A DNA stretch of 23,789 bases, taken from NCBI GenBank assembly GCA_005801425.1, contig SYDY01000009.1, forward strand, positions 1 through 23,789, in the 5' to 3' direction. The position numbers were made by a program, and so were the translations under genes. The notes beneath the pieces were generated by a model. That model did not search any database, was not told the origin of the DNA, and was given only the letters and a program-made list of their open reading frames with translations. This document shows positions 6,066-21,271 of the stretch, piece by piece. How positions within the stretch are numbered: position 1 is the first letter of the stretch; every line of letters starts with the position of its first letter. Source of the DNA: Bdellovibrionales bacterium (GTDB lineage Bacteria > Myxococcota > XYA12-FULL-58-9 > SYDY01).

Positions 6066-6662
6066 CTACACCCACCCACAAATCGTATCGACCCAATCGG
6101 CCACATGGTGTCCATTGCACACAAGATCAGCAAAGATTTTGCTGGGCTCAACGTACTGGTTGTGCATGGGAGCGACTTGTTCTGAGAATTGGGTGAACAC
6201 GCCGTCGGGGGTTCGGCCGCGTTCACGGATATCGCGATCAAGGCGGCGTTGATAGCGCAGCGATTCAGGGGCTTCCACAAAGACTGTGCGATCAGCCAAA
6301 GCACGAATACGCGGCAGGGTGAGCAATAAAATACCTTCCACGAGGATCACGGGACGCGGTTCAATGGTGCGTGTGTCTTCACTGCGCGTATGGGTCACAA
6401 AATCATAAATGGGAATGCGCACGGTTTTTCCATTGCACAGTGATTCAAGTTGGCATGCCAGCAAATCAAAATCGATGCTTGATGGATGGTCAAAATTAAC
6501 GCTGCGACTGTCCTTGGCGAATTGTTCGCTTAAATCGTGAAAATAACTGTCTTGGCACAAATACGCGCAGCGCTCAGGGCCAAGACGTTCGCGTACCAAA
6601 CGTGCCAGTGTTGTTTTACCCGAACCACTTCCGCCGCTGATGGCGATCACAAACGGTTTCAT
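6066..6662 (-). CDS. udk: Uridine kinase
   Basis: A 198-aa cytosolic kinase phosphorylating uridine (and usually cytidine) to the monophosphate. The Walker A loop GGSGSGKT is at residues 10-17, and the substrate-site blocks follow: QDSY (37-40), NFDHP (56-60), PIYDF (84-88), VEGILL (108-113) and the lid-like RDIRERGR (143-150). All are standard for bacterial Udk, and the length is normal (about 200-215). Its ATG directly follows the TAG of upp with no spacer, so translation is probably coupled. It is the last gene of the urc1-urc4-upp-udk block, where it would feed uridine into the UMP pool used by the URC route. Phosphoribulokinase shares the fold, but the NFDHP and PIYDF blocks favour Udk. 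Confidence 0.95.
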   Translation of the reverse strand: MKPFVIAISGGSGSGKTTLARLVRERLGPERCAYLCQDSYFHDLSEQFAKDSRSVNFDHPSSIDFDLLACQLESLCNGKTVRIPIYDFVTHTRSEDTRTIEPRPVILVEGILLLTLPRIRALADRTVFVEAPESLRYQRRLDRDIRERGRTPDGVFTQFSEQVAPMHNQYVEPSKIFADLVCNGHHVADWVDTICGWV

Positions 6663-7289
6663 CTACGACACCCCGTAAATTCGTTCGCCCACATCACCAA
6701 GACCAGGAAGAACCATACCCTGTGCATCGAGTGTGGCATCGACGCCAATGGTGATGATCTGAATGTCAGGATGGACTTCAGCTAGATTTTGAAGACCCGG
6801 TTGTGCGGCGAGAAAACAGACAAACGTCAGATCCTTGGCGCCTGCATCTTTGAGGCGATTCACGGCGGTGATGGCGGTGGCACCCGATGCCAGAATGGGA
6901 TCCACAAGAAACGTGTGATGTTCGCTGATGTTGTTGGGCAATCGGTTGTAATATTCCACCGTCGCTTTCACAAAACTATCGCGGTAGATCCCAAGATGGC
7001 CCGCGACGGATCCTGGAATGATATCGAGAAACGCTTCTTGCATGAGAATACCCGCACGCAAAATGGACACCACCAACACGGGCTTTGAGAATTTGTTCCC
7101 TACGGTATCGCCCTGAGGCGTTTGGACGCGCCATGGCTCGGTGGGAAGTTCTCGACACAATTCATAGGCAAGCATTTCTGCGATTTGCCGTGCGACGGCG
7201 CGAAAGCGCCCGGTGGATGCGGCCTCACGTCGAAGATCGGTGAGTTTGTGTTGCAAAAGTGGATGCTGCAAATGGACAATGTTGCTCAT
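6663..7289 (-). CDS. upp: Uracil phosphoribosyltransferase
   Basis: A 208-aa enzyme making UMP from uracil and PRPP. Evidence includes SILRAGILM near residue 76, the PRPP loop VDPILASGATA (canonical DPMLATGG) near residue 131, and the C-terminal uracil-site block PGLGDVGERIYGV (canonical PGLGDAGDRIFGT). Start: ATG 7289 shares one base with the TGA of urc4 (TGATG), a typical reinitiation junction; a TTG at 7292 is in frame but unnecessary. In the fungal URC pathway a UPRT homologue (URC6) is required for uracil breakdown, so this gene may serve catabolism as well as salvage. Confidence 0.95.
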   Translation of the reverse strand: MSNIVHLQHPLLQHKLTDLRREAASTGRFRAVARQIAEMLAYELCRELPTEPWRVQTPQGDTVGNKFSKPVLVVSILRAGILMQEAFLDIIPGSVAGHLGIYRDSFVKATVEYYNRLPNNISEHHTFLVDPILASGATAITAVNRLKDAGAKDLTFVCFLAAQPGLQNLAEVHPDIQIITIGVDATLDAQGMVLPGLGDVGERIYGVS

Positions 7290-8452
7290 CAAAAAACCGT
7301 CCCATCGCTGATGATTGACAAAGGGGGTGCCCCGTTGCGCAAACGTGCCGCACGCTCACGTCCCATGGCCCAGGTGCCTGCTTGTAAAATGCCGCCCATG
7401 GGCAGATCTTCCGAAGACGTTTCTAGGATATCGCGCACGAGATCTGCGAGGCACTCGATCAAACCCACAGTCAATGCGCGCCATGCAATGATCACATCGC
7501 TTCCAGGGTGGTGTTGTTCTTCGATAAGATAGGGCTCACGCAGTTTCAAAACGCCAGCGTCCATCAAAAGACCGCCATTGCGATATTCTGCCAATGCGGT
7601 GAGACTGTCATCGCGCTCAAGATGCACGTTCACGTAGGCCAGCGGTTCAATGCACGAATAGCTAAGCCATTGGGGAAGTTTGTGAAGCGCCACAGGCTCA
7701 TTCCATGGGCCGTAGTGCCACACATCACCCATGGGGATCCCGTCGAGTGTTAATCGACTTGGAAACACAAAACCAAGCACACACAAAAATCGTTCGAGTA
7801 CATCGGACGCTTCTTCAAGCGTTCGATAGGGTTTGAGAATATCAGCACAACGGGAAAGGCCATGATCATTAAGCGTATGGCCTAAGGCATTGAGCATTGC
7901 ACAGCGGCCTTCAAAGCCTGCCAGGGCATTGTCACTGCGGTGTTGAAGCCCTTCGGCGAGTTGTTCAGGTTTTAAATTAATCAAGGCATGGGCATCGACG
8001 CGATTGGGATCGTCCTCGGTGGCTGCAAAAATCCCCTGCATGAACATTTCAAGGCTTGCGACGGCCAATCCTTCGCTGCGTCCGATGATGCCTGCTTCAG
8101 GCGAATGGTAGCGCCATGCTTTTCCTGCACCGGCATCGAGCAATACGCTGACCACCGCAAGATCGATCAGGGCCTCCGCGGTGCCGATGTCCGATGTTCC
8201 CTGAAGCCGTTCCATGAAGATCATGAATGTTTCAGGACATGCGGTTTCAAAATGACGCCAGCGTGCGTGCAATGGCACGGCTTGACGTCCGTATTGGGTG
8301 CGTATGCGCTCGGCCAATTCGCGTGCAAGCGCATTGAGTGCGTCTTCGTCGACAGAAAATGGCGTCCCGCCGTGCTGTGCTTCTTGCAGCATCCGATCAG
8401 AGGCATCGAGTACCGCGTCCACGCAAAGAAGTGATTTTACATCAGTACTCAT
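7289..8452 (-). CDS. urc4: Urc4/Urg3-type uracil catabolism protein (DUF1688)
   Basis: A 387-aa protein matching the DUF1688 family (URC4 of Lachancea kluyveri, urg3 of fission yeast). Recognisable parts are the N-terminal helix with RIRTQYGRQAVPLHARWRHF, then LLDAGAGKAWRYHSPE (~110-125), GRSEGLAVASLEMF, the middle YRTLEEASDVLERFL, and the C-terminal FVFPSRLTLDGIPMGDVWHY and GVLKLREPYLIE. The biochemical step is not settled. Yeast urc4 mutants are reported to accumulate ribosylurea, so it probably acts after ring opening. Start: ATG 8452 has AAAGGA about 10 bases upstream and overlaps the end of urc1 by 11 bp; an ATG at 8473 lies further upstream in frame without a better site. It overlaps upp by one base. 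Confidence 0.9.
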   Translation of the reverse strand: MSTDVKSLLCVDAVLDASDRMLQEAQHGGTPFSVDEDALNALARELAERIRTQYGRQAVPLHARWRHFETACPETFMIFMERLQGTSDIGTAEALIDLAVVSVLLDAGAGKAWRYHSPEAGIIGRSEGLAVASLEMFMQGIFAATEDDPNRVDAHALINLKPEQLAEGLQHRSDNALAGFEGRCAMLNALGHTLNDHGLSRCADILKPYRTLEEASDVLERFLCVLGFVFPSRLTLDGIPMGDVWHYGPWNEPVALHKLPQWLSYSCIEPLAYVNVHLERDDSLTALAEYRNGGLLMDAGVLKLREPYLIEEQHHPGSDVIIAWRALTVGLIECLADLVRDILETSSEDLPMGGILQAGTWAMGRERAARLRNGAPPLSIISDGTVF

Positions 8453-9698
8453 GAATGCTTCGTCCTTTAACATGCGTGAGATCTAAGTCGGTTTTATCAT
8501 CACTGAAATAACCCGCAGCCTTTTTGGCTTCCATTTCCACCGATGCGTCGTGTGGAATACGATCAGCAGGAATGGTGGTGCGTTTGCCCACGGTAATACC
8601 TGCTTTGATCAGTGCACCATGCTTCATGTCGCTCATGGAAACGAGTTCGTGAATGTGCTGTATGCCAAACCACGTAAAAATATCAGGCATAAATTCTTGA
8701 AAACGAACATCTTGTACGCCCGCAACGCATTCGGTGCGGGTGAAATAGGTTGCGGCTGTATCACCGCCAGGTTGACGTTTGCGGGCATTGTACACCAAAA
8801 ATTTGGTGACTTCGCCCAAGGATCGTCCCTCCTTGCGATAATACACCACAAGGCCAGCGCCACCTTTTTGCGCCGATAAAATAGCGCGTTCGATGCCGTA
8901 GAGAAGATAGGGCCTGCATGTGCAAATGTCTGAACCGAAAACATCGGATCCGTTGCATTCATCGTGCATGCGTACCGCAAGCGGTTTTTTGGGATCGGAA
9001 AACCCTTGGGGATCGCCAAAAATATAGGCCGTCGCGCCGCCAATGGGCGGCAGCATCACTTTAAGATCGGGGCGGGTGATAAGCTCTGGGTACATGCCGC
9101 CTGTGCGTTGAAACAAATTGCGGCGCAAATCGCCTTCGTCGATACCGAGGCGTGCAGCAATGCCAGGCAAATACCACACGGGTTCCATCGCCACTTTGGT
9201 GACCACCACATCGCCGGTGGATTTAACCACGGTGCCATCGACGGGGATGATCCCTTTTCGGATCGCGTCCATCAATTCAGGCATTTGAATGCTGGCGCGT
9301 GTGATGGCGATGGTGGGGCGAATGTCGATGTCTTTTTCCAGAAGATGGGCGAAATCCTGTTGGATGCGCGCGCCGTAGGGATCCATGCTCACAATGCGTG
9401 TGGGATCGTGCCACGCGGGGTTGGGCGCGATATCAACCACAGGCGAGGTATTGGTTAGATCAGGCCTATGGTTGTGTTTGAGGCTTCCTGCAGCTTCTGC
9501 AAGCGCGCGATACACGGTGTAACTTCCACTGTGTGCGCCGATGGCATTGCGCATTTTCGTATCTGCAAACGTCGCGATAATAGGACCGCGTTCATGGGCG
9601 GAGGCCGCTCCCCAATGAATGGCGGGCGCTTTGTTGGCAATGCGCGGATGTGACGTCAGCACCACATGATCATGAAGATCCCACATGGCATGTTTCAT
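8442..9698 (-). CDS. urc1: Urc1-type GTP cyclohydrolase II homologue, uracil catabolism
   Basis: A 418-aa protein. The C-terminal ~220 residues are GTP cyclohydrolase II-like: MHDECNGSDVFGSDICTC keeps the three zinc cysteines (C248, C259, C261, spacing C-x10-C-x-C as in RibA), and YYRKEGRSLG (286-295) replaces the RibA QEGRGIG block. D330-x-R332 appears to match the catalytic Asp-x-Arg of RibA. Residues 1-~195 form an extension absent from RibA (~200 aa total), typical of the Urc1 branch. No DHBP synthase or other riboflavin gene is nearby; instead urc4, upp and udk follow. In the fungal pathway Urc1 is needed to open the pyrimidine ring, probably on a uridine nucleotide. ATG 9698 lacks a purine-rich ribosome site. 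A barrel protein gene ends 29 bp upstream, so the promoter may lie before that gene. Confidence 0.92.
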   Translation of the reverse strand: MKHAMWDLHDHVVLTSHPRIANKAPAIHWGAASAHERGPIIATFADTKMRNAIGAHSGSYTVYRALAEAAGSLKHNHRPDLTNTSPVVDIAPNPAWHDPTRIVSMDPYGARIQQDFAHLLEKDIDIRPTIAITRASIQMPELMDAIRKGIIPVDGTVVKSTGDVVVTKVAMEPVWYLPGIAARLGIDEGDLRRNLFQRTGGMYPELITRPDLKVMLPPIGGATAYIFGDPQGFSDPKKPLAVRMHDECNGSDVFGSDICTCRPYLLYGIERAILSAQKGGAGLVVYYRKEGRSLGEVTKFLVYNARKRQPGGDTAATYFTRTECVAGVQDVRFQEFMPDIFTWFGIQHIHELVSMSDMKHGALIKAGITVGKRTTIPADRIPHDASVEMEAKKAAGYFSDDKTDLDLTHVKGRSIHEY

Positions 9699-13156: not shown

Positions 13157-13849
13157 CTAAAGTAAATTCAATTCATTGCGAATGGCTATAGCCTGTTCGT
13201 TTTGCCCAAGCACTTCGAGTGTTGATGCAAGTCGTGCAAGTGTTTCTTGGGTATGTTCGTGCTCTGCGCCGAGCATACGGAGTTGCTGCTTGCTTGTAAG
13301 TGTCAGTATCTCGCAGGCTTTTTCAAAATCACCGGATTCATGAAGCAATGCGGCCAAGTCGGCGTAGCCGCGCAAGGTTGCAGGGTGCTCATGGCCTAAG
13401 TGTCGAATCATAATGGCGAGATTGCTGCGCAAGAGGGTTTTTGCCTGTTCCGTATGCCCTTTTTTAAGAAGAACCTGTGCGAGTCCTGCGGCGGCGGTGA
13501 GCAATTCTTCAAAAGCTGTTGTGTCCATATTGTCAGTGCGTTGATGACGAATGGCACATTGGTAGGCGACAGTGGCCTCATCGAGACGTCCCAAGCGCAA
13601 GAGAATATCGCCATGTTGGCGCTGTGCACGCATGACTCCGATGCCTGTGATCTTTTCGTGATCAACACCGATCAGTGCATGGCGAAAAGCGATTTCGGCG
13701 AGTTCAAGATCGCCTTGTGCGATCAATTGCTCTGCAGCATGAATACGGCACTCAAAAAGTGCTGGTTTTTGAAAAACCTGCGAAAGACAATTAGCGATGT
13801 TAAATTGGTCGACCGAATAAGAAACAGAAAAACTCATGGGACCATCCAT
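13157..13849 (-). CDS. Tetratricopeptide repeat protein
   Basis: A 230-aa all-helical protein with tandem TPR units, for example AEQLIAQGDLELAEIAFRHAL, LLRLGRLDEATVAYQCAI, VLLKKGHTEQAKTLLRSNL, LLHESGDFEKACEIL and LEVLGQNEQAIAIRNEL. The ~42-residue spacing and the sequence HEHPATL/HEHTQETL resemble kinesin light chain or NPHP3-type TPRs. There is no signal peptide, so it is probably a cytosolic scaffold for protein contacts with an unknown partner. The start is either ATG 13849 or ATG 13837 (MSFSVSY); neither has a strong ribosome site. It diverges from glpD; if glpD starts at 13998 there is a ~150-bp AT-rich shared promoter region. Confidence 0.85.
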   Translation of the reverse strand: MDGPMSFSVSYSVDQFNIANCLSQVFQKPALFECRIHAAEQLIAQGDLELAEIAFRHALIGVDHEKITGIGVMRAQRQHGDILLRLGRLDEATVAYQCAIRHQRTDNMDTTAFEELLTAAAGLAQVLLKKGHTEQAKTLLRSNLAIMIRHLGHEHPATLRGYADLAALLHESGDFEKACEILTLTSKQQLRMLGAEHEHTQETLARLASTLEVLGQNEQAIAIRNELNLL

Positions 13850-13997
13850 GCAGGCTTTAAGTCATGTGGGCTGCCTGCGAAAAAAAGATACGCACACCGT
13901 GTTTTTTTTTCCGCATAAAATTTTGTTGATTGCAATAGATGAAGGGACATGTGTGCATTTGCTGGCCAAAGAACACATCCATGGGCATAGTGATCTT

Positions 13998-15539
13998 GTG
14001 AAACGCGAAATAGGAACAGCAGCACTCGAGAATCGACGGGATGTTTGGGATGTTGTGATCATCGGTGGGGGCGCCACAGGGCTTGGATGCGCTGTGGAGG
14101 CCGCCACACGTGGTTACCGCACACTGCTCCTTGAGCAATGTGATTTTGCCAAGGGCACTTCAAGCCGCAGTACCAAATTGGTACACGGCGGTGTGCGCTA
14201 TCTCAAGCAGGGCAATGTTTCTTTGGTGATGGAGGCGTTGCGTGAACGGGGTCGCCTTCTGCGCAATGCGCCACATCTTGTGCACAATTTGCGCTTTGTG
14301 GTGCCAAGCTTTGATTGGTGGGAGGGGCCTTTCTACGGTATCGGCATGCGTCTTTACGACATGTTGGCGGGGAAGTTGGGCCTTGGTCCGTCGCGTATGT
14401 TGAGTTTTGCGGACACCGTCGAACGCATTCCTACCATTGAACGGCATGGTCTTCGTGGGGGTGTGGAATATTACGATGGACAATTTGACGATGCACGTTT
14501 GGCGATAAGCCTTGCGCAAACGGCGTGTGACCATGGTGCGGTGCTTGTTAATTATATCCCTGTGATGGGCATTTTAAAACGAAGTGATTTGGTGTGTGGT
14601 GTGCTGTGTCGCGATCTTGAAACGGGACGCGAGTTTCAGATCCGCGCAAAATCGGTAATCAATGCCGCAGGCGTGTTTGCCGATGCGGTATCCGCATTGG
14701 ATGACCCCCGAACACCGCCTACGATGAAACCCAGCCAAGGCATTCACATTGTTTTGGAACGGCGTTTTTTGCCGGGCGATGCTGCGATCATGGTGCCACA
14801 AACCGACGATGGTCGTGTCTTGTTTGCTATTCCGTGGCACAATCGTGTGGTGGTGGGGACCACGGACACACCGGTCTCTAAGCTCTCTTTGGAACCGCGT
14901 CCATTGCCGGAGGAGCTTGAATTTGTACTGACCCACGCACGCCGTTATCTCTCTGAAGATCCCACCGATGACGATGTTCTTTCGACATTTGCCGGTTTAA
15001 GGCCACTGATCGCTGGGGGAAATGGAAATACGGCAGCGGCAAGCCGTGATCACAATATTTTTATTTCGAGCAGTGGTCTTATTACTGTGGTGGGCGGCAA
15101 GTGGACCACCTATCGCAAAATGGGCGAGGACGCCGTCGAAAAAGCGATGATGGTGGGTGGTTTGCGTGAGTCCGAAAGCAAAACAGCGGCTCTGCCTGTG
15201 CACGGTGCCCATACGGCTGCGGTGCCGGAACCGTGGTGTGTTTACGGCTCGGATGCGCGTGCGGTGCGTAAATGTGTTGGGCACGATCCTGTCATTCTCC
15301 ATCCCCGTTTGCCCTATACCGATGCCCATGTGCACTGGGCGGTCACCCAAGAAATGGCCAGAACTGTGGACGATGTGCTTGCGCGCCGAACTCGTGCTTT
15401 GCTCCTTGATGCCCGTGCCGCACGCGATTGTGCGAACAAAGTGGCCAAACAGATGGCCCCTTTGCTTGGGCGCACTGACGCATGGGTGCAGGAGCAAGTG
15501 ACGGAATTTAAGGCGTTGGCTGAAGGCTACATCGTTTAA
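13998..15539 (+). CDS. glpD: Aerobic/respiratory glycerol-3-phosphate dehydrogenase (FAD)
   Basis: A 513-aa flavoprotein oxidising sn-glycerol 3-phosphate to dihydroxyacetone phosphate at the inner membrane, passing electrons to quinone. The FAD-binding Rossmann motif VVIIGGGATGLG is near residues 19-30, followed by GTSSRSTKLVHGGVRYL (the GlpD signature), VVGTTDTP in the middle, and FAGLRPL and GGKWTTYRKM in the C-terminal half. GTG 13998 gives an N-terminus (MKREIGTAALENRRDVWDVV) and length usual for the family. GTG 13953, with GAAGGGA five bases upstream, is a real alternative adding 15 residues; the longer frame from 13836 overlaps the divergent TPR gene and has no homologous extension. 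No glpK or glpF is nearby. A hairpin terminator follows. Confidence 0.94.
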   Translation: MKREIGTAALENRRDVWDVVIIGGGATGLGCAVEAATRGYRTLLLEQCDFAKGTSSRSTKLVHGGVRYLKQGNVSLVMEALRERGRLLRNAPHLVHNLRFVVPSFDWWEGPFYGIGMRLYDMLAGKLGLGPSRMLSFADTVERIPTIERHGLRGGVEYYDGQFDDARLAISLAQTACDHGAVLVNYIPVMGILKRSDLVCGVLCRDLETGREFQIRAKSVINAAGVFADAVSALDDPRTPPTMKPSQGIHIVLERRFLPGDAAIMVPQTDDGRVLFAIPWHNRVVVGTTDTPVSKLSLEPRPLPEELEFVLTHARRYLSEDPTDDDVLSTFAGLRPLIAGGNGNTAAASRDHNIFISSSGLITVVGGKWTTYRKMGEDAVEKAMMVGGLRESESKTAALPVHGAHTAAVPEPWCVYGSDARAVRKCVGHDPVILHPRLPYTDAHVHWAVTQEMARTVDDVLARRTRALLLDARAARDCANKVAKQMAPLLGRTDAWVQEQVTEFKALAEGYIV

Positions 15540-15592: not shown

Positions 15593-15650
15593 TCATGATG
15601 CGTCAATAAAATGTTGTTAAGCTCTCTCTATCCATAGCGGCCAATTCACT

Positions 15651-15666
15651 TGGCACGACCCTTGCA
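15651..15666 (+). promoter_or_regulatory. Sigma-54 (-24/-12) promoter of the sigma-factor gene
   Basis: TGGCACG-ACCC-TTGCA matches the sigma-54 consensus TGGCACG-N4-TTGCW at every fixed position, with the invariant GG at 15652-15653 and GC at 15664-15665. Transcription should start about 12 bases after the GC, near 15676-15678. No enhancer-binding site is obvious between the glpD terminator and the promoter. Confidence 0.85.
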
Positions 15667-15676
15667 TATCCTTCTG

Positions 15677-15836
15677 TGTCCGTCGGCGACGGTAAGTTCT
15701 TGCTTAAGAGAAATCTTAAGGAAAACAAGGGCTTAGCGTTGCCGACGGAATAATAAAGCGCCTCCCAGGCAAGACAACCCCGCAAAAAGGTTGTCCGACA
15801 TGTTGGGGCGCTACGCAAACTTTGCGGAGGCTGCAG
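15677..15836 (+). ncRNA. Highly structured leader RNA or sRNA before the sigma-factor gene
   Basis: The predicted transcript begins 1-3 bases before a long hairpin. Stem segments: 15679-15691 with 15737-15749 (13 bp, one G-U), 15693-15702 with 15726-15735 (10 bp, two G-U), and 15703-15709 with 15714-15720 (7 bp) closed by a GAAA tetraloop; there is one G-G mismatch and one 5-base bulge. A second domain pairs 15757-15764 with 15805-15812 and, inside it, GACAACC (15773-15779) with GGTTGTC (15789-15795). A small GCAA/TTGC hairpin (15815-15825) touches the GGAGG ribosome site (15826-15830). I do not recognise a known riboswitch. It may be a cis-acting leader, a processed sRNA, or both. Confidence 0.7.
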
Positions 15837-17006
15837 ATGGATAAGCTAGGAATGGAAAACAATATCAGCGAAACCACCACCAAAAGCACCGGGGAATGCA
15901 AAGATCTGCTTGAGAAATATCTCGGTAGTCTTGGGGTTACAGGCGAGAAGGCATCCGCTGAACGTGAACAGTACCTCGCACAAAAGCTTGAGCAAGCGAC
16001 CCGCAAGGTCTGGAGCTTGGTGCTTGCAAGCAAAATTGCGCGTCAAGCAACCATCCGTCGTGGCAGCGAGTTGCCAGCAGCAATCATGGCAAGCCTTGGC
16101 AACGGATCGCGCCAGCCAACCTTTGCGGGCGAAGAAGACGCCATTGCGCAGATCATCAAAGCAGACGTCGATCGTATCGTTCTTGAAGCGGTTGTGAAAG
16201 ATACCGTGCGTGAGGGGGCTGGTGCAGCGGCAGCGCTTGAAGAGGCATTTCGCCGTATGTTGCAGGTTCGCAATCGTTTTGTGCGCGTGAATTTACCATT
16301 GGTGGTGAGTGTTGCGCGCAGATTGCGCCGCAGCGGCATGCCTTTTGTGGATCGTATTCAAGAAGGCAATATGGGTCTTTTGAAGGCCGTGCATCGTTTC
16401 GATTATACCCGTGGCTATCGTTTTTCGACCTATGCCCATTGGTGGATCCGTCAAGGCATCGAGCGTGCTGTCGATAACACCGGCAAGCATGTACGTGTGC
16501 CTGTGCGAACATTGATCCAACGCCGTGAGCTTGAAAAACAACGTCAAGCCTTGGTGAATCTCAATGGTCGTGAACCTACGCGCATGGAATTAACAACAGC
16601 CCTTGGTTGGGATGTTGAACGTGTGGATGAGATCCTTGCCGCGGGTGAAGGTGCGCTGATTAGTTTTGAAGGCAGCAGCGATGATGACACAGCGTTCGCG
16701 CCTGCGGAAAGCATTGCCGACGAAACACAACCACGCATTGATGAAGAACTGTGCCGTCGTGAGTTGCGTGAACGTGTCGCCGGTTTCATGAATACATTGT
16801 CGATTACGGAGCGTGAAGTTCTTAAACGTCGCTATGGTCTTGAAAGCGATACCACGGAAACGCTGCAAGATGCCGCATTGGCGTTGAAGGTTTCTCCCGA
16901 AACGGTTCGTCAGGCGCAACTTCGTGCCATTAAGAAAATCCGAAGCGCCTGCAAGCGCAGCGGTATTGCAACATTGTTTGCATCACCGGCGCGCGCGTCG
17001 GTTTAA
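15837..17006 (+). CDS. Group-2 sigma-70 family RNA polymerase sigma factor
   Basis: A 389-aa sigma factor. Region 1.2-like segment at ~22-55 (DLLEKYLGSLG ... AEREQYLAQKLE); a non-conserved insert at ~56-140; region 2 at ~145-215 (NLPLVVSVARRL, IQEGNMGLLKAVHRFDYTRG, FSTYAHWWIRQGIERA); region 3 at ~225-275; region 4 at ~310-372 (LSITEREVLKRRYGL, then the helix-turn-helix ETLQDAALALKVSPETVRQAQ). Region 1.1 of the housekeeping RpoD is absent, which points to an alternative (RpoS-like or group-2) factor that recruits polymerase to a stress or developmental regulon. The start is ATG 15837, six bases after GGAGG; a TTG at 15822 is in frame but would overlap the ribosome site. It is transcribed from a sigma-54 promoter through a structured leader. 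Its stop is one base from the convergent lipoprotein stop. Confidence 0.93.
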   Translation: MDKLGMENNISETTTKSTGECKDLLEKYLGSLGVTGEKASAEREQYLAQKLEQATRKVWSLVLASKIARQATIRRGSELPAAIMASLGNGSRQPTFAGEEDAIAQIIKADVDRIVLEAVVKDTVREGAGAAAALEEAFRRMLQVRNRFVRVNLPLVVSVARRLRRSGMPFVDRIQEGNMGLLKAVHRFDYTRGYRFSTYAHWWIRQGIERAVDNTGKHVRVPVRTLIQRRELEKQRQALVNLNGREPTRMELTTALGWDVERVDEILAAGEGALISFEGSSDDDTAFAPAESIADETQPRIDEELCRRELRERVAGFMNTLSITEREVLKRRYGLESDTTETLQDAALALKVSPETVRQAQLRAIKKIRSACKRSGIATLFASPARASV

Positions 17007-17007
17007 G

Positions 17008-17745
17008 TTAGGGCACGACATAATCAGCGGCCCAGATCTGCGAGAGGGTGGTGGTGACTCCCGTGATATCCTGCGCTGTGGCGGTCAGGTTTTTTTCAAA
17101 CGCCGTGTTATTGCATGGGGTGGCTCTCACTTGACCTGAAAATACGCCATCCCGTGCGGTTTCATCGCCGCCGGCAACACCATCATCATACAGCCGAATG
17201 GGATCGGGCACGCCAATAGGGCGACCATCAATGCTCACTTGGGCAATATGATTGAGTTTGTCCGGTGTGGTCGCACGCAAGCGAAAACGCAATTCAGCAG
17301 TACGATCCCGTGCCAAGATGCTTATGCTAGAATTTTTTTCAGCAGGTGCATTTCGAGTGTCAACAGCACGTACCGACACTGTTCGGGATCCAGCACGCAA
17401 AAATTGGTGCTGTACGGTGACACCGGATGCCGTTTCTCCATCGTCAAACGTCCATGTATATTGCACGTCGCCTACCGCGTTGCTTGCAACGGCTGTAAAT
17501 GTCCCTTGATTGCAAACATCAAAGGGATCAGGTGTTGTGATGCTGACTGTCAGGGCTTCGACCGTGCCGCCACCATCTCCACTGCCTCCGCCATCACCTC
17601 CGTCGCCACCATCTCCACCACCTCCGCCATCACCACCTCCGTCCCCGCCATCGCGTGGATCGTCGGTTGGTGTGGTTGTACTGCTTGATTTGCATGCAGC
17701 ACATGCAATGCTCATCATAAAAATAATGCGTGTCAATTTGCGCAT
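17008..17745 (-). CDS. Lipoprotein with Asp/Gly linker and PKD domain
   Basis: A 245-aa protein from ATG 17745, with GGAGG nine bases upstream. A longer frame to 17961 would overlap the preceding gene and bury the signal. The N-terminus is a lipoprotein-type signal (MRKLTRIIFMMSIACAAC) with acylation likely at C15 or C18. Residues ~30-60 are a Gly/Asp linker made of DGG units. Residues ~66-145 form a PKD-like beta domain (YTWTFDDGETASG, VQHQFLRAGSRTVSVRAVD). The C-terminal part (~150-245) carries RLYDDGVAGGDETARDGVFSG, a motif seen in surface-anchored adhesive or 'choice-of-anchor' type domains. Likely at the cell surface or outer membrane. It follows the M6 protease gene by 28 bp and is probably co-transcribed, so it may act as partner or anchor of the protease. 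Confidence 0.83.
   Translation of the reverse strand: MRKLTRIIFMMSIACAACKSSSTTTPTDDPRDGGDGGGDGGGGGDGGDGGDGGGSGDGGGTVEALTVSITTPDPFDVCNQGTFTAVASNAVGDVQYTWTFDDGETASGVTVQHQFLRAGSRTVSVRAVDTRNAPAEKNSSISILARDRTAELRFRLRATTPDKLNHIAQVSIDGRPIGVPDPIRLYDDGVAGGDETARDGVFSGQVRATPCNNTAFEKNLTATAQDITGVTTTLSQIWAADYVVP
17566..17652 (+). repeat. Low-complexity triplet tract coding the Asp/Gly linker
   Basis: Imperfect tandem triplets and hexamers (CCATCT, CCACCT, CCTCCG on the plus strand) encode the DGG-type linker of the lipoprotein on the minus strand. Tracts of this kind change length by slippage in multiples of three, so the linker length may vary between strains without frameshift. Confidence 0.7.
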
Positions 17746-17773
17746 GAATGCGATCCTCCAAAAATGAAATCGA

Positions 17774-20700
17774 TCACTGTTGTACTTTTTGAAGCACCGG
17801 TTTTTCGCTCGCCTTGGTGCTGTGCTTGAGAACAATGAGATCACCACTTTGTGTTCCGAGAAGAATTTCGTCGGAACCATCGCCATCGACATCGCCTGTG
17901 GTGATTGCAAAAACACCCATACCTTCAACGTCTTCACTGCTATCTGTAATTCCGTTGCCATTGAGATCGGGAAGTTTCATCACCATGCCGTAACCGTAGA
18001 CGTAAACACCATCTCCTACGGTGGGCCGTGAACAATGGCCTCCCATGCCGAGAACCATGTTGGGTGTGCCATCGCCATCCACGTCGCCTACGGCAATGGC
18101 GGGGTTGTAGCCTGTGCCTGTGTACCCGCCGAAGCTATCGGAGAATACGCTTTCATAGCGATCGGGCAATGTTTCATCGCCTTTTACAAATTTGAATACG
18201 TTGAGACTGTTGTCTTTGTTGTCGCCCACGATGATTTCAAGTTTTCCATCATCGTCGAAATCATGGGGCAAAAGTGCTGATTTGTTGTTGCCCCATTTCT
18301 CGCGCACTTTAAAAACTTCTTTGTGGGATGCATTTTCGCCCCATGTAAAAACAAGCAAACGACCCGTTTGAAAACCGTTGCCATCGGCGAAAACAATTTC
18401 GGGTCCTGCAGTATCATCCATGTCTGCGATGAATGCTTTGGGTGACAAATACGCCCATGAGGATTGACTGTTGCTTGATGAGTCCCACCATTCTGTCAGG
18501 GGCGATGTTTGGTTGTTGAGAAGCGTCAACGATGCGCTGGTGATTGCATCGGTGAACACATCTTTTAATAGGCTGTTGCCTGTGAATGAGGGGGTGTGCT
18601 CCGGAGTACCCAGCGTAAACATGGTCACTTGGTCTGTATAATTTAGATCTGGGTTGTAAGGTTTGACCGCGATGATTTGAAACTGTGTGCTTTGTGTATT
18701 GTTTGGCAATAGACCATGGGCAAGCGTTTGATGGGCAGAGAACCGAATTTTATCGCTGCCGTCAATCCTGCCGTAAGGTCTTTCAATAGGATATAGGATG
18801 GAATTCATCGTGCCATTTTGACCCGTGAATAAAACGCCCGCGCCACCGCATAAACCTGTGACAAGAATGCTGTTGGGTCGACCCGGCAAATCAAGAACGG
18901 TGGCAGAAATACCTAAACCGCCACCGCACGCATAAACTTGATAGGCAAACGAGAGGTTATCGCCCTGCGTATAATGATCAGGTATTGTTTGTGGTGAGGT
19001 AATTTTTGCAGGCACAAAATCCCAAATGGATGCTCCGAGCTTTCCATTCTCACCGATGCGGTACATACTTAAATACGATAATCCCACAGGATTGACGCTG
19101 CTGGGACATGGCGATGATTGATCATTCCGATGCACGATGCACCACGCGTCGTGCAGAATATCCCGATAGGCCACCAAAATTTCGTTGCCATTGTCGTCAT
19201 CACCATCAAAATTGCGTACCCAAACCTGGGTAATTTCACCACGACATGCGTTGTAGCCACCGCCGCGATAACACAATGCTTTGCCTGAGGTGTTAGGATT
19301 GTTAGGGGTGCTAGGATTGAGATCTGTCCACGAGCTGTCATTCGCGGGGGCCGCAAAAAACGCGTTGGATGCGCCAAGTGTAACGCAGTCCTCGGCGTAA
19401 GGGTTGCCTGTGCAATTGTAATGTTCAAAGGCCCACGATTGAGCCGTAAATTCGGCGGCTTTTTCTCCCATACGAATGTGATCCACAATGGCGAACGCGC
19501 TGATTTGTCCGTTGATATACGCACGATCGCGAATTGTGAGATCGGGTGCATTTTTCGACGTGACGCTTGCAAAAAGGTCCACATTGCCTGCTGCTGCGGT
19601 GGTCATGTCCCACGTGAATGTTTTTGTGTCACCGGGTGCAATATCATCGTTGCCGTCGATGATGGGCGATGTGTTGCTCCAGGGGTTGCTGGGGACATCG
19701 GCCATGGTGGCTTGAACGTCGGTGGCGGCCACACCGCCTACGTTGGTGACTTCTACACGAACCGATAGGCTTTCTCCTAGACTGTGCGGATCGTGCGTGA
19801 TGCGCACCAATGCAATGTTAAGTTCAGGCTGGACGTGACTGTTTTTGATGACCGAGATGGTATGGCTACTTTTGTTGATTTCACTGAGTATGTTGAGTGT
19901 GATGCCACGTGCGCGATAAATACTTTGGCCCACTTGATCTTCACCCGCTGGACGCGTGCCGGGCCTTCCTGAAAGTGGCGGGATGAACGGGGCATCGGCG
20001 AGCAATGCTTCGGGTGAAATACCGCGTACGGCTTCATTGGGATAGGCATCGGCAAGCTGCACCAAAGGCCGTGGTGATCCATCGTAATTGGCGCCGTATT
20101 CGTCAATTTCCCACACGAGAACACCGTTGGATGGCAAGTAGGCATCGATCCCCGCACTGGCGTTGTTAACGCCGCGTCCTGCTGCATTAAAACGCGATTC
20201 CACAAGCAAGTAATGATTGGGATCATTGGCATCGTTGGGATTGAGCGACGGCAAAGGAATGCGAACAACACTGGGTGATCCCAAAAGAGGACTGGATGTT
20301 TGTAAGGGATCTGTGTTTGCGAATGTTGTTGTGATCTCAGTTGCCCAGCCGAGCACTGTCAATCCGTAGGCATCAATCCCTGTCGGTTTTTCTCCAGCGT
20401 GTTTGGGTGGCCCACTCCATGTTCCCAAATCCATCAGTGACCAGTAGCCCACCATACTTTTGTTGGGAGGGCCGTAGGAATAAAGATCAGGAAGCCCAAG
20501 ATTGTGGGCAAATTCGTGGGCATAAATACCGATGGGGGAACGTGCACTGATGATGCTGCCGCCATACAATATTTTGTCGTCGAAACTGTGGCGTGCATCG
20601 GCGCTGTACCATTCAAAGTGGGACCAAATATCGGTGGGATTGCGTGTGATCGCTTGATCCATCCCCGAGTGCACAATCATGACAAAATCGATGCATCCGT

Positions 20701-21271
20701 CGTTGTTTTTGTCGTATAGCGAATAATCGATATCCTCATCAAAAGCGGCAAGTGTGGCTTGAACAATGGGATCCGCTTTGGGTGTAAATTCGCTACCATC
20801 GGTTTTGTTGGTGGCGCTGCTGGAATGGGTGATGCGTTTCCAAGGCTTAACGTCTCCCGTAAGCGTAAGGGGGGTGTTGATGGAAGATTGCGCGTAGTAG
20901 GTCGTAAGTGTCACGGCCCCATCATTGGGTGTTCCAAACAAAAAGGCAGATAATTTTTCAGGGGTGTCTCGATCAGCGGGAGGATCTTGCGCTTCATCGA
21001 TGATGACAGGAAGCACAAGGATTGTTTGGTTACCACTTGTGGGTACTGTGCAATCGTTTTCCAACGCTTGTGCATTGCTGGAAAAAAGTGTTTGAAAAAA
21101 TCCACGTTGTGTCTTTGATTGTTCAATGGCTTGTCGTGGATAGTAGGAAACAGGCCCTGGGAAGTGTTCTGAGAGGGTTTGGAGCGGGGTGGGTTCAATT
21201 TCAGTTTTGCAAGCTACAAGGCTTAAAAGCAATGTGACAAAAAGATAAGTTGATTGCTTGCGTGATCCCAT
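17774..21271 (-). CDS. M6-family (immune inhibitor A-like) metalloprotease lipoprotein
   Basis: An 1165-aa protein. A lipoprotein signal has LVAC ending at C21. The M6-like peptidase domain spans ~80-430, with the zinc motif HEFAHNLGLPD (HExxH at 252-256), an Asp-rich, probably Ca-binding loop DKNNDGCIDFVMIVHSG before it, and LMDLGTWSG and AYGLTVLGW after it. A CARDB-like adhesive domain follows (~480-600: LNIALVRITHDPHSLG, VRVEVTNVGG). A long middle region has many Cys and aromatic residues. FG-GAP/VCBS repeats start around residue 970, with Ca-loops DFDDDGKLEI, DVDGDGTPN, DLNGNGITD and DVDGDGSDE. ATG 21271 has ACGGAG three to four bases upstream. Likely secreted or held at the outer membrane to degrade extracellular protein. 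No cysteine-switch propeptide is evident. Confidence 0.88.
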   Translation of the reverse strand: MGSRKQSTYLFVTLLLSLVACKTEIEPTPLQTLSEHFPGPVSYYPRQAIEQSKTQRGFFQTLFSSNAQALENDCTVPTSGNQTILVLPVIIDEAQDPPADRDTPEKLSAFLFGTPNDGAVTLTTYYAQSSINTPLTLTGDVKPWKRITHSSSATNKTDGSEFTPKADPIVQATLAAFDEDIDYSLYDKNNDGCIDFVMIVHSGMDQAITRNPTDIWSHFEWYSADARHSFDDKILYGGSIISARSPIGIYAHEFAHNLGLPDLYSYGPPNKSMVGYWSLMDLGTWSGPPKHAGEKPTGIDAYGLTVLGWATEITTTFANTDPLQTSSPLLGSPSVVRIPLPSLNPNDANDPNHYLLVESRFNAAGRGVNNASAGIDAYLPSNGVLVWEIDEYGANYDGSPRPLVQLADAYPNEAVRGISPEALLADAPFIPPLSGRPGTRPAGEDQVGQSIYRARGITLNILSEINKSSHTISVIKNSHVQPELNIALVRITHDPHSLGESLSVRVEVTNVGGVAATDVQATMADVPSNPWSNTSPIIDGNDDIAPGDTKTFTWDMTTAAAGNVDLFASVTSKNAPDLTIRDRAYINGQISAFAIVDHIRMGEKAAEFTAQSWAFEHYNCTGNPYAEDCVTLGASNAFFAAPANDSSWTDLNPSTPNNPNTSGKALCYRGGGYNACRGEITQVWVRNFDGDDDNGNEILVAYRDILHDAWCIVHRNDQSSPCPSSVNPVGLSYLSMYRIGENGKLGASIWDFVPAKITSPQTIPDHYTQGDNLSFAYQVYACGGGLGISATVLDLPGRPNSILVTGLCGGAGVLFTGQNGTMNSILYPIERPYGRIDGSDKIRFSAHQTLAHGLLPNNTQSTQFQIIAVKPYNPDLNYTDQVTMFTLGTPEHTPSFTGNSLLKDVFTDAITSASLTLLNNQTSPLTEWWDSSSNSQSSWAYLSPKAFIADMDDTAGPEIVFADGNGFQTGRLLVFTWGENASHKEVFKVREKWGNNKSALLPHDFDDDGKLEIIVGDNKDNSLNVFKFVKGDETLPDRYESVFSDSFGGYTGTGYNPAIAVGDVDGDGTPNMVLGMGGHCSRPTVGDGVYVYGYGMVMKLPDLNGNGITDSSEDVEGMGVFAITTGDVDGDGSDEILLGTQSGDLIVLKHSTKASEKPVLQKVQQ

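What the first reader, a model, noticed from the sequence alone, without database searches (positions are those of the whole stretch)
15677..15836. Undescribed structured RNA between a sigma-54 start site and a sigma-factor gene
The predicted +1 lies within three bases of the foot of a 30-bp hairpin with a GAAA tetraloop; a second two-part domain and a small hairpin abutting GGAGG follow. A start site at the stem foot is what one expects of a functional RNA. It could be a cis regulator of sigma-factor translation, a processed sRNA, or both. From memory, Myxococcus Pxr is a sigma-54-linked structured sRNA; I cannot show homology.
Basis: partly seen in the sequence, partly recalled or inferred. 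Interest (0 to 1): 0.72.

Follow-up and report, generated by a model that had tools for sequence, protein, structure and literature searches.

The report
Sigma-54 leader RNA shared by two genes
A strongly folded RNA stretch lies between a switch-type (sigma-54) promoter and a gene for a sigma factor, and a diverged second copy with the same layout sits in front of an unrelated protease gene of the same bacterium, so it is probably a reusable regulatory leader known so far from this one genome only.

Summary
A near-consensus sigma-54 site (15651-15666) places +1 at about 15677. A 30-bp hairpin starts two bases later, followed by a two-part domain, a small hairpin and GGAGG six bases before the ATG of a sigma-70-family gene. 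The fold is far stronger than shuffles (z -7.1) and matches no Rfam family.

New evidence: a diverged second copy of the whole cassette exists in the same genome (G000:C31), from sigma-54 site to start codon, in front of an unrelated secreted trypsin-like protease. Upstream of -26 the two loci share nothing. The 3' domain is conserved by sequence (22 identical bases running through both hairpin strands and the loop). The 5' hairpins keep pairing while their sequence changes. No third copy was found in 195 genomes of the phylum, GTDB species (exact motif), phages or plasmids.

Best reading: a lineage-specific, sigma-54-transcribed 5' leader acting in cis on two genes, with a 5' stabiliser hairpin plus an RBS-proximal recognition domain. 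Two copies cannot give covariation proof. The 30-bp outer stem is not kept in the second copy. No terminator supports a discrete sRNA, and the Pxr link is not supported. Mechanism of translational control remains inference.

The parts
15650..15666 (+). sigma-54-type promoter (-24 GG at 15652-15653, -12 GC at 15664-15665)
   Evidence: exact match to YTGGCACGNNNNTTGCW; same site at the homologous place in the C31 copy
15677..15678 (+). predicted transcription start
   Evidence: 12 bases after the -12 C; inference from sigma-54 spacing
15679..15749 (+). 5' domain: 30-bp hairpin (13+10+7 bp) with GAAA tetraloop; C31 has two hairpins (P1 with GCGA loop, P2 of 12 bp) in its place
   Evidence: 5' domain of the copy folds better than neutrally mutated versions, 21/1000
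15757..15812 (+). 3' domain (P3): outer stem 15757-15764/15805-15812 and inner hairpin 15773-15779/15789-15795 with loop CCGCAAAAA
15775..15796 (+). 22-base block identical in both copies (CAACCCCGCAAAAAGGTTGTCC), stem and loop together
   Evidence: run length reached in 15 of 20000 permutations
15760..15765 (+). GCCUCC, possible anti-Shine-Dalgarno, paired inside P3 in the ground state
   Evidence: constrained fold -26.4 vs -31.5 kcal/mol; inference
15814..15826 (+). small hairpin CGCAA/UUGCG abutting the ribosome-binding site
   Evidence: GCAA/UUGC kept in the copy
15826..15830 (+). Shine-Dalgarno GGAGG, 6 bases before ATG (same spacing, TGAGG-6-TTG, in the copy)
   Evidence: sequence
15837..17006 (+). 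sigma-70-family sigma factor gene (regions 2, 3, 4; 389 aa)
   Evidence: Pfam, NCBIfam
15800..15844 (+). conserved ACATG opening a 14-codon ORF that overlaps the sigma start; frame not conserved in the copy

Best explanation
A lineage-specific, sigma-54-transcribed structured 5' leader that works in cis on the gene behind it. RNA polymerase with sigma-54 starts at about 15677 when an enhancer-binding protein is active. The hairpin beginning two bases from the 5' end shields the 5' end and stabilises the message. The conserved 3' domain next to the ribosome-binding site is the recognition part: a trans factor (protein, small RNA or ligand) reading the CCGCAAAAA loop and hairpin would shift the balance between the P3 fold, which leaves GGAGG largely free, and a fold in which GCCUCC in P3 or the small hairpin covers GGAGG. 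The same leader is fitted to a secreted protease gene, so the two genes form a small regulon controlled at both transcription start and translation. Shown: two genomic copies with the same layout, strong fold, sequence-level conservation of the 3' domain. Inferred: start site, RNA function, cis action, translational control and its direction.
For: The second copy at G000:C31 reproduces promoter, leader, SD-to-start spacing and the first bases of the reading frame before an unrelated gene (blastn 80% over about 70 bases, E 8.7e-11). Homology stops just upstream of the promoter core. Folding z is -7.1 and -4.5 for the two copies. The 22-base identical block covers both hairpin strands and the loop. 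The 5' domain of the copy folds better than 98% of neutrally mutated versions, and the window's better than all 1000. RpoN and activators are present. The only recognisable promoter on this strand is sigma-54.
Against: Only two copies exist, so there is no statistical covariation: 0 pairs with both sides changed in the 3' domain. The 3' domain of the copy folds no better than neutral mutants of the window's (421/1000). The 13-bp base of the 30-bp hairpin has no counterpart in C31, which lacks its 3' strand. SD accessibility in the predicted ensembles swings with the 3' end chosen and differs between copies. The anti-SD pairing is weaker in C31. Relatives' sigma genes carry no such leader.
Confidence: 0.58

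Rival explanations
1. A duplicated promoter cassette without an RNA role: a segment from promoter core to start codon was copied to give a second gene sigma-54 control, and the remaining likeness is ancestry while structures are incidental.
For: Only two copies in one genome; the 3' domain's fold is no better than expected from neutral change; no pair with both sides changed.
Against: Conservation is uneven, with 22 identical bases inside a 69%-identical domain (15/20000 permutations); the 5' hairpins stay perfectly paired with different sequences; the fold is far stronger than shuffles in both copies.
Confidence: 0.2
2. The leader is processed, or transcribed separately, into a stable trans-acting small RNA, with the downstream gene as a by-product or second output.
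For: Very stable 5' hairpin starting at +1 to +3; the highly conserved CCGCAAAAA loop could be a seed; Pxr is a precedent for a sigma-54-driven structured sRNA (PMC5684412).
Against: No intrinsic terminator after the structure on the + strand; conservation runs to the RBS and start codon with fixed spacing; both copies are followed directly by a gene in the same orientation.
Confidence: 0.12
3. The conserved stretch acts as DNA: the dyads downstream of +1 are binding sites of a regulator, and the RNA fold is a side effect.
For: TTAAGA-GAAA-TCTTAA and its C31 counterpart are good dyads; upstream of the promoters no shared activator site was seen.
Against: The most conserved part lies 98-120 bases downstream of the start, against the RBS, and includes a non-palindromic loop; the dyads differ in sequence between the copies.
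Confidence: 0.06
4. A conserved upstream reading frame (AAAAAGG-N9-ATG at 15800) couples translation to the sigma gene, and coding rather than RNA structure is conserved.
For: ATG and the AAAAGG before it are conserved in both copies; in the window the 14-codon ORF ends 8 bases inside the sigma gene.
Against: A one-base indel changes the frame between the copies: in C31 the ATG is in frame with the protease, so the peptide is not conserved.
Confidence: 0.04

Closest known systems
RpoN-to-RpoS cascade of Borrelia burgdorferi with 5'-UTR control of rpoS by DsrA/Hfq (PMC3037356, PMC3966842)
   Same: a sigma-54 promoter drives a sigma-70-family gene whose 5' UTR structure is thought to tune translation
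   Different: no sequence or positional relation tested or expected; there a trans sRNA is known, here none; here the leader also precedes a protease gene
Pxr sRNA of myxobacteria (PMC5684412, PMC5568312)
   Same: predicted sigma-54 promoter, several stable stem-loops, about 108-160 nt
   Different: Pxr lies between nla19 and an NADH dehydrogenase gene and acts as a free, processed sRNA; here the RNA abuts the RBS of a sigma gene, in a glpD neighbourhood
5'-terminal stabiliser hairpins (ompA/papA 5' UTR type; cited in PMC3997798)
   Same: strong hairpin with only one or two unpaired bases at the 5' end
   Different: those lack the conserved RBS-proximal second domain (own knowledge); stabilisation not measured here
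Translational riboswitches and protein-bound RBS leaders in general
   Same: conserved recognition hairpin next to an RBS, reused before unrelated genes
   Different: no match to any Rfam family; no ligand or protein known; only two members

Membership tests
any Rfam family | covariance-model match at the curated cut-off | tested here: not met
   no hit in the window at gathering score; best chance-level hits 20 and 17.7 bits against cut-offs of 62 and 32; none for the copy
Pxr | locus between nla19 and an NADH dehydrogenase gene (PMC5568312) | tested here: not met
   neighbours are glpD (13836-15539) and a sigma-70-family gene
Pxr | sequence and structure of SL1-SL3 | not tested
   the Pxr sequence was not at hand; indirectly, the 3'-domain model hits nothing else in 195 genomes of the phylum
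sigma-54-dependent promoter | GG at -24, GC at -12 with consensus TGGCACGNNNNTTGCW | tested here: met
   exact match at 15650-15666; the relaxed motif occurs 421 times against 271 for the reversed control genome-wide, while the exact 17-base motif occurs 3 times against 3
sigma-54-dependent promoter | genome encodes RpoN and enhancer-binding proteins | tested here: met
   one Sigma54_DBD match, E 7.5e-61; four strong Sigma54_activat matches
structured cis-regulatory leader | fold stronger than shuffled sequence | tested here: met
   z -7.13 and -4.47
structured cis-regulatory leader | compensatory changes across homologues | tested here: inconclusive
   two sequences only; 5' domain keeps pairing beyond neutral expectation, 3' domain does not
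structured cis-regulatory leader | reuse before unrelated genes | tested here: met
   sigma factor and trypsin-like protease
intrinsic-terminator attenuator or free sRNA | hairpin followed by a run of U | tested here: not met
   no + strand terminator between 15600 and 17200

The most novel reading that the evidence does not exclude
A new RNA family: a sensor leader that reads a specific protein or small molecule through the CCGCAAAAA hairpin and gates translation of a sigma factor and a secreted protease, giving a sigma-54-to-sigma-70 cascade a second, RNA-level checkpoint.
Probability: 0.2. Interest if true: 0.7.

Novelty: new member of a known kind. Interest (0 to 1): 0.45.

Why it matters
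If right, it adds an undescribed leader RNA to a lineage whose post-transcriptional control is little studied, and links a sigma-54 signal to a second sigma factor and a secreted protease through one shared RNA module. Two natural copies before different genes make reporter tests easy.

Tried and rejected
Rfam at gathering and at E<=10: only chance matches. Blastn in 38 relatives. 3'-domain model R1 in the 97 nearest genomes, in all 195 held of the phylum, and in 39 with laxer filters: five weak hits of 15-20 bits; the four full-length ones were inspected and rejected because they lack the loop block and a convincing promoter. Exact motif in GTDB r220: none. IMG/VR 17-mer: three chance hits. 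Phages and plasmids: none. C89:16288 (3 mismatches) lies in what looks like coding sequence without a promoter. C75:9800 shares only a promoter-like string before a comEA-like gene. Small-ORF reading rejected because the frame shifts between the copies. CsrA-type GGA sites were considered; the bulge GGA of the window is absent in C31. Loop-to-RBS pseudoknot (CCGCAAA with UUUGCGG): 7 bp in the window, weakened in C31; not separable from the local small hairpin with two sequences.

Full report
Observation. The window holds a sigma-54-type promoter TTGGCACGACCCTTGCA at 15650-15666. By standard spacing the start is 15677 or 15678. The transcript 15677-15836 folds at -75 kcal/mol against -46 for shuffles (z -7.13). 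The second domain is 15757-15812 and the small hairpin 15814-15826. GGAGG at 15826-15830 and ATG at 15837 begin a sigma-70-family gene with regions 2, 3 and 4. The genome encodes RpoN and four strong enhancer-binding-protein matches. No sigma-70-type promoter was found on this strand and no terminator follows the structure. The relaxed sigma-54 motif is commoner than its reversed control genome-wide (421 against 271), but the exact 17-base motif is not (3 against 3), so the case for this site rests on its place and on the second copy.

A second copy. A blastn search of the own genome with the leader gave one further place, G000:C31. Reading it (L003:2865-3045) shows the same order: CGGCACGATTCTTGC, then GGCGACGG at nearly the same distance from the start, a hairpin, the block CAACCCCGCAAAAAGGTTGTCC, TACGCAAA..TTGC, GAGG, six bases, and a start codon (TTG). 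Behind it is a secreted trypsin-like protease (PF00089, E 1.8e-47) that is unrelated to a sigma factor. Upstream of the promoter core the two loci share nothing recognisable. So the shared unit runs from promoter to start codon.

How the copies differ. Over the aligned leader 98 of 135 positions are identical. In the 3' domain 22 identical bases run through stem, loop and stem of the inner hairpin; only 15 of 20000 permutations of the same identities give such a run. This points to recognition of the sequence itself, not of the fold alone: changing the window's 3' domain at random by the same amount gives folds as good as C31's in 421 of 1000 trials. In the 5' domain the opposite holds. C31 has a short hairpin with a GCGA loop and a twelve-pair hairpin GGUUUUAUUAAG/CUUAAUAAAACC, while the window has UAAG..CUUG..UUAAGA/UCUUAA..CAAG..CUUA plus a 13-pair base. 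Neutral change from the window yields a fold as good as C31's in 21 of 1000, and from C31 a fold as good as the window's in 0 of 1000. The 13-pair base of the 30-bp hairpin is private to the window, because C31 lacks its 3' strand. Counted pair by pair, the 3' domain has no pair changed on both sides, so formal covariation is absent.

Distribution. A covariance model of the 3' domain (R1) finds the two copies (E 3.9e-23 and 8.8e-21; they match by construction) and no third in the own genome, and no credible hit in the 195 held genomes of the phylum. The genome has no held relative nearer than its order. The exact 20-base motif is absent from GTDB r220, and phages and plasmids have no match. 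Sigma-gene homologues of relatives (about 40% identical) have neither the leader nor a clear sigma-54 site. Metagenomes could not be searched.

Mechanism. The evidence fits a cis-acting leader. The 5' hairpin starting one or two bases from the 5' end is of the kind known to protect messages (stabiliser hairpins cited in PMC3997798). The conserved 3' domain touches the RBS. In the predicted ground state GCCUCC (15760-15765) is held in P3; when it is paired with GGAGGC instead, the fold costs 5.1 kcal/mol (-26.4 against -31.5). The predicted openness of the RBS changes with the 3' end used and differs between the copies, so the direction of control is not settled. A cascade from sigma-54 to a second sigma factor with RNA control at the 5' UTR has a precedent in Borrelia (PMC3037356, PMC3966842), as an analogy only. 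The Pxr lead fails on synteny; its sequence was not compared.

Verdict. A real, strongly folded, twice-used leader, new to Rfam and so far unique to one genome. It is probably a cis-regulatory RNA of a known general kind. Its trigger and mode of action are open.

Noticed in passing
window 6066-9698: Three or four adjacent minus-strand genes (uridine-kinase-like, uracil phosphoribosyltransferase-like, a long unknown, GTP-cyclohydrolase-II-like) look like a uracil catabolism (URC-type) cluster; named by eye only.
   Followed up: no
window 17774-21271: Large secreted protein that looks like a metallopeptidase with FG-GAP-like repeats (by eye), next to a PKD-domain protein (17008-17961).
   Followed up: partly
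L047, L052, L062 (G000:C23, C56, C1): Repeats of the form AGGCCCTTTTTAGGCACG...CTTGC, an inverted repeat that mimics the sigma-54 motif; one copy lies just before a gene that looks like a REP-associated transposase. They inflate sigma-54 motif counts in this genome.
   Followed up: partly
L202:805-830 (G000:C75:9800): Promoter-like GGTACGATTCTTGCTT directly before a small comEA-like gene.
   Followed up: partly
window 15800-15844: Conserved ACATG with AAAAGG before it; opens a 14-codon ORF overlapping the sigma start, in frame with the protease in the C31 copy.
   Followed up: yes
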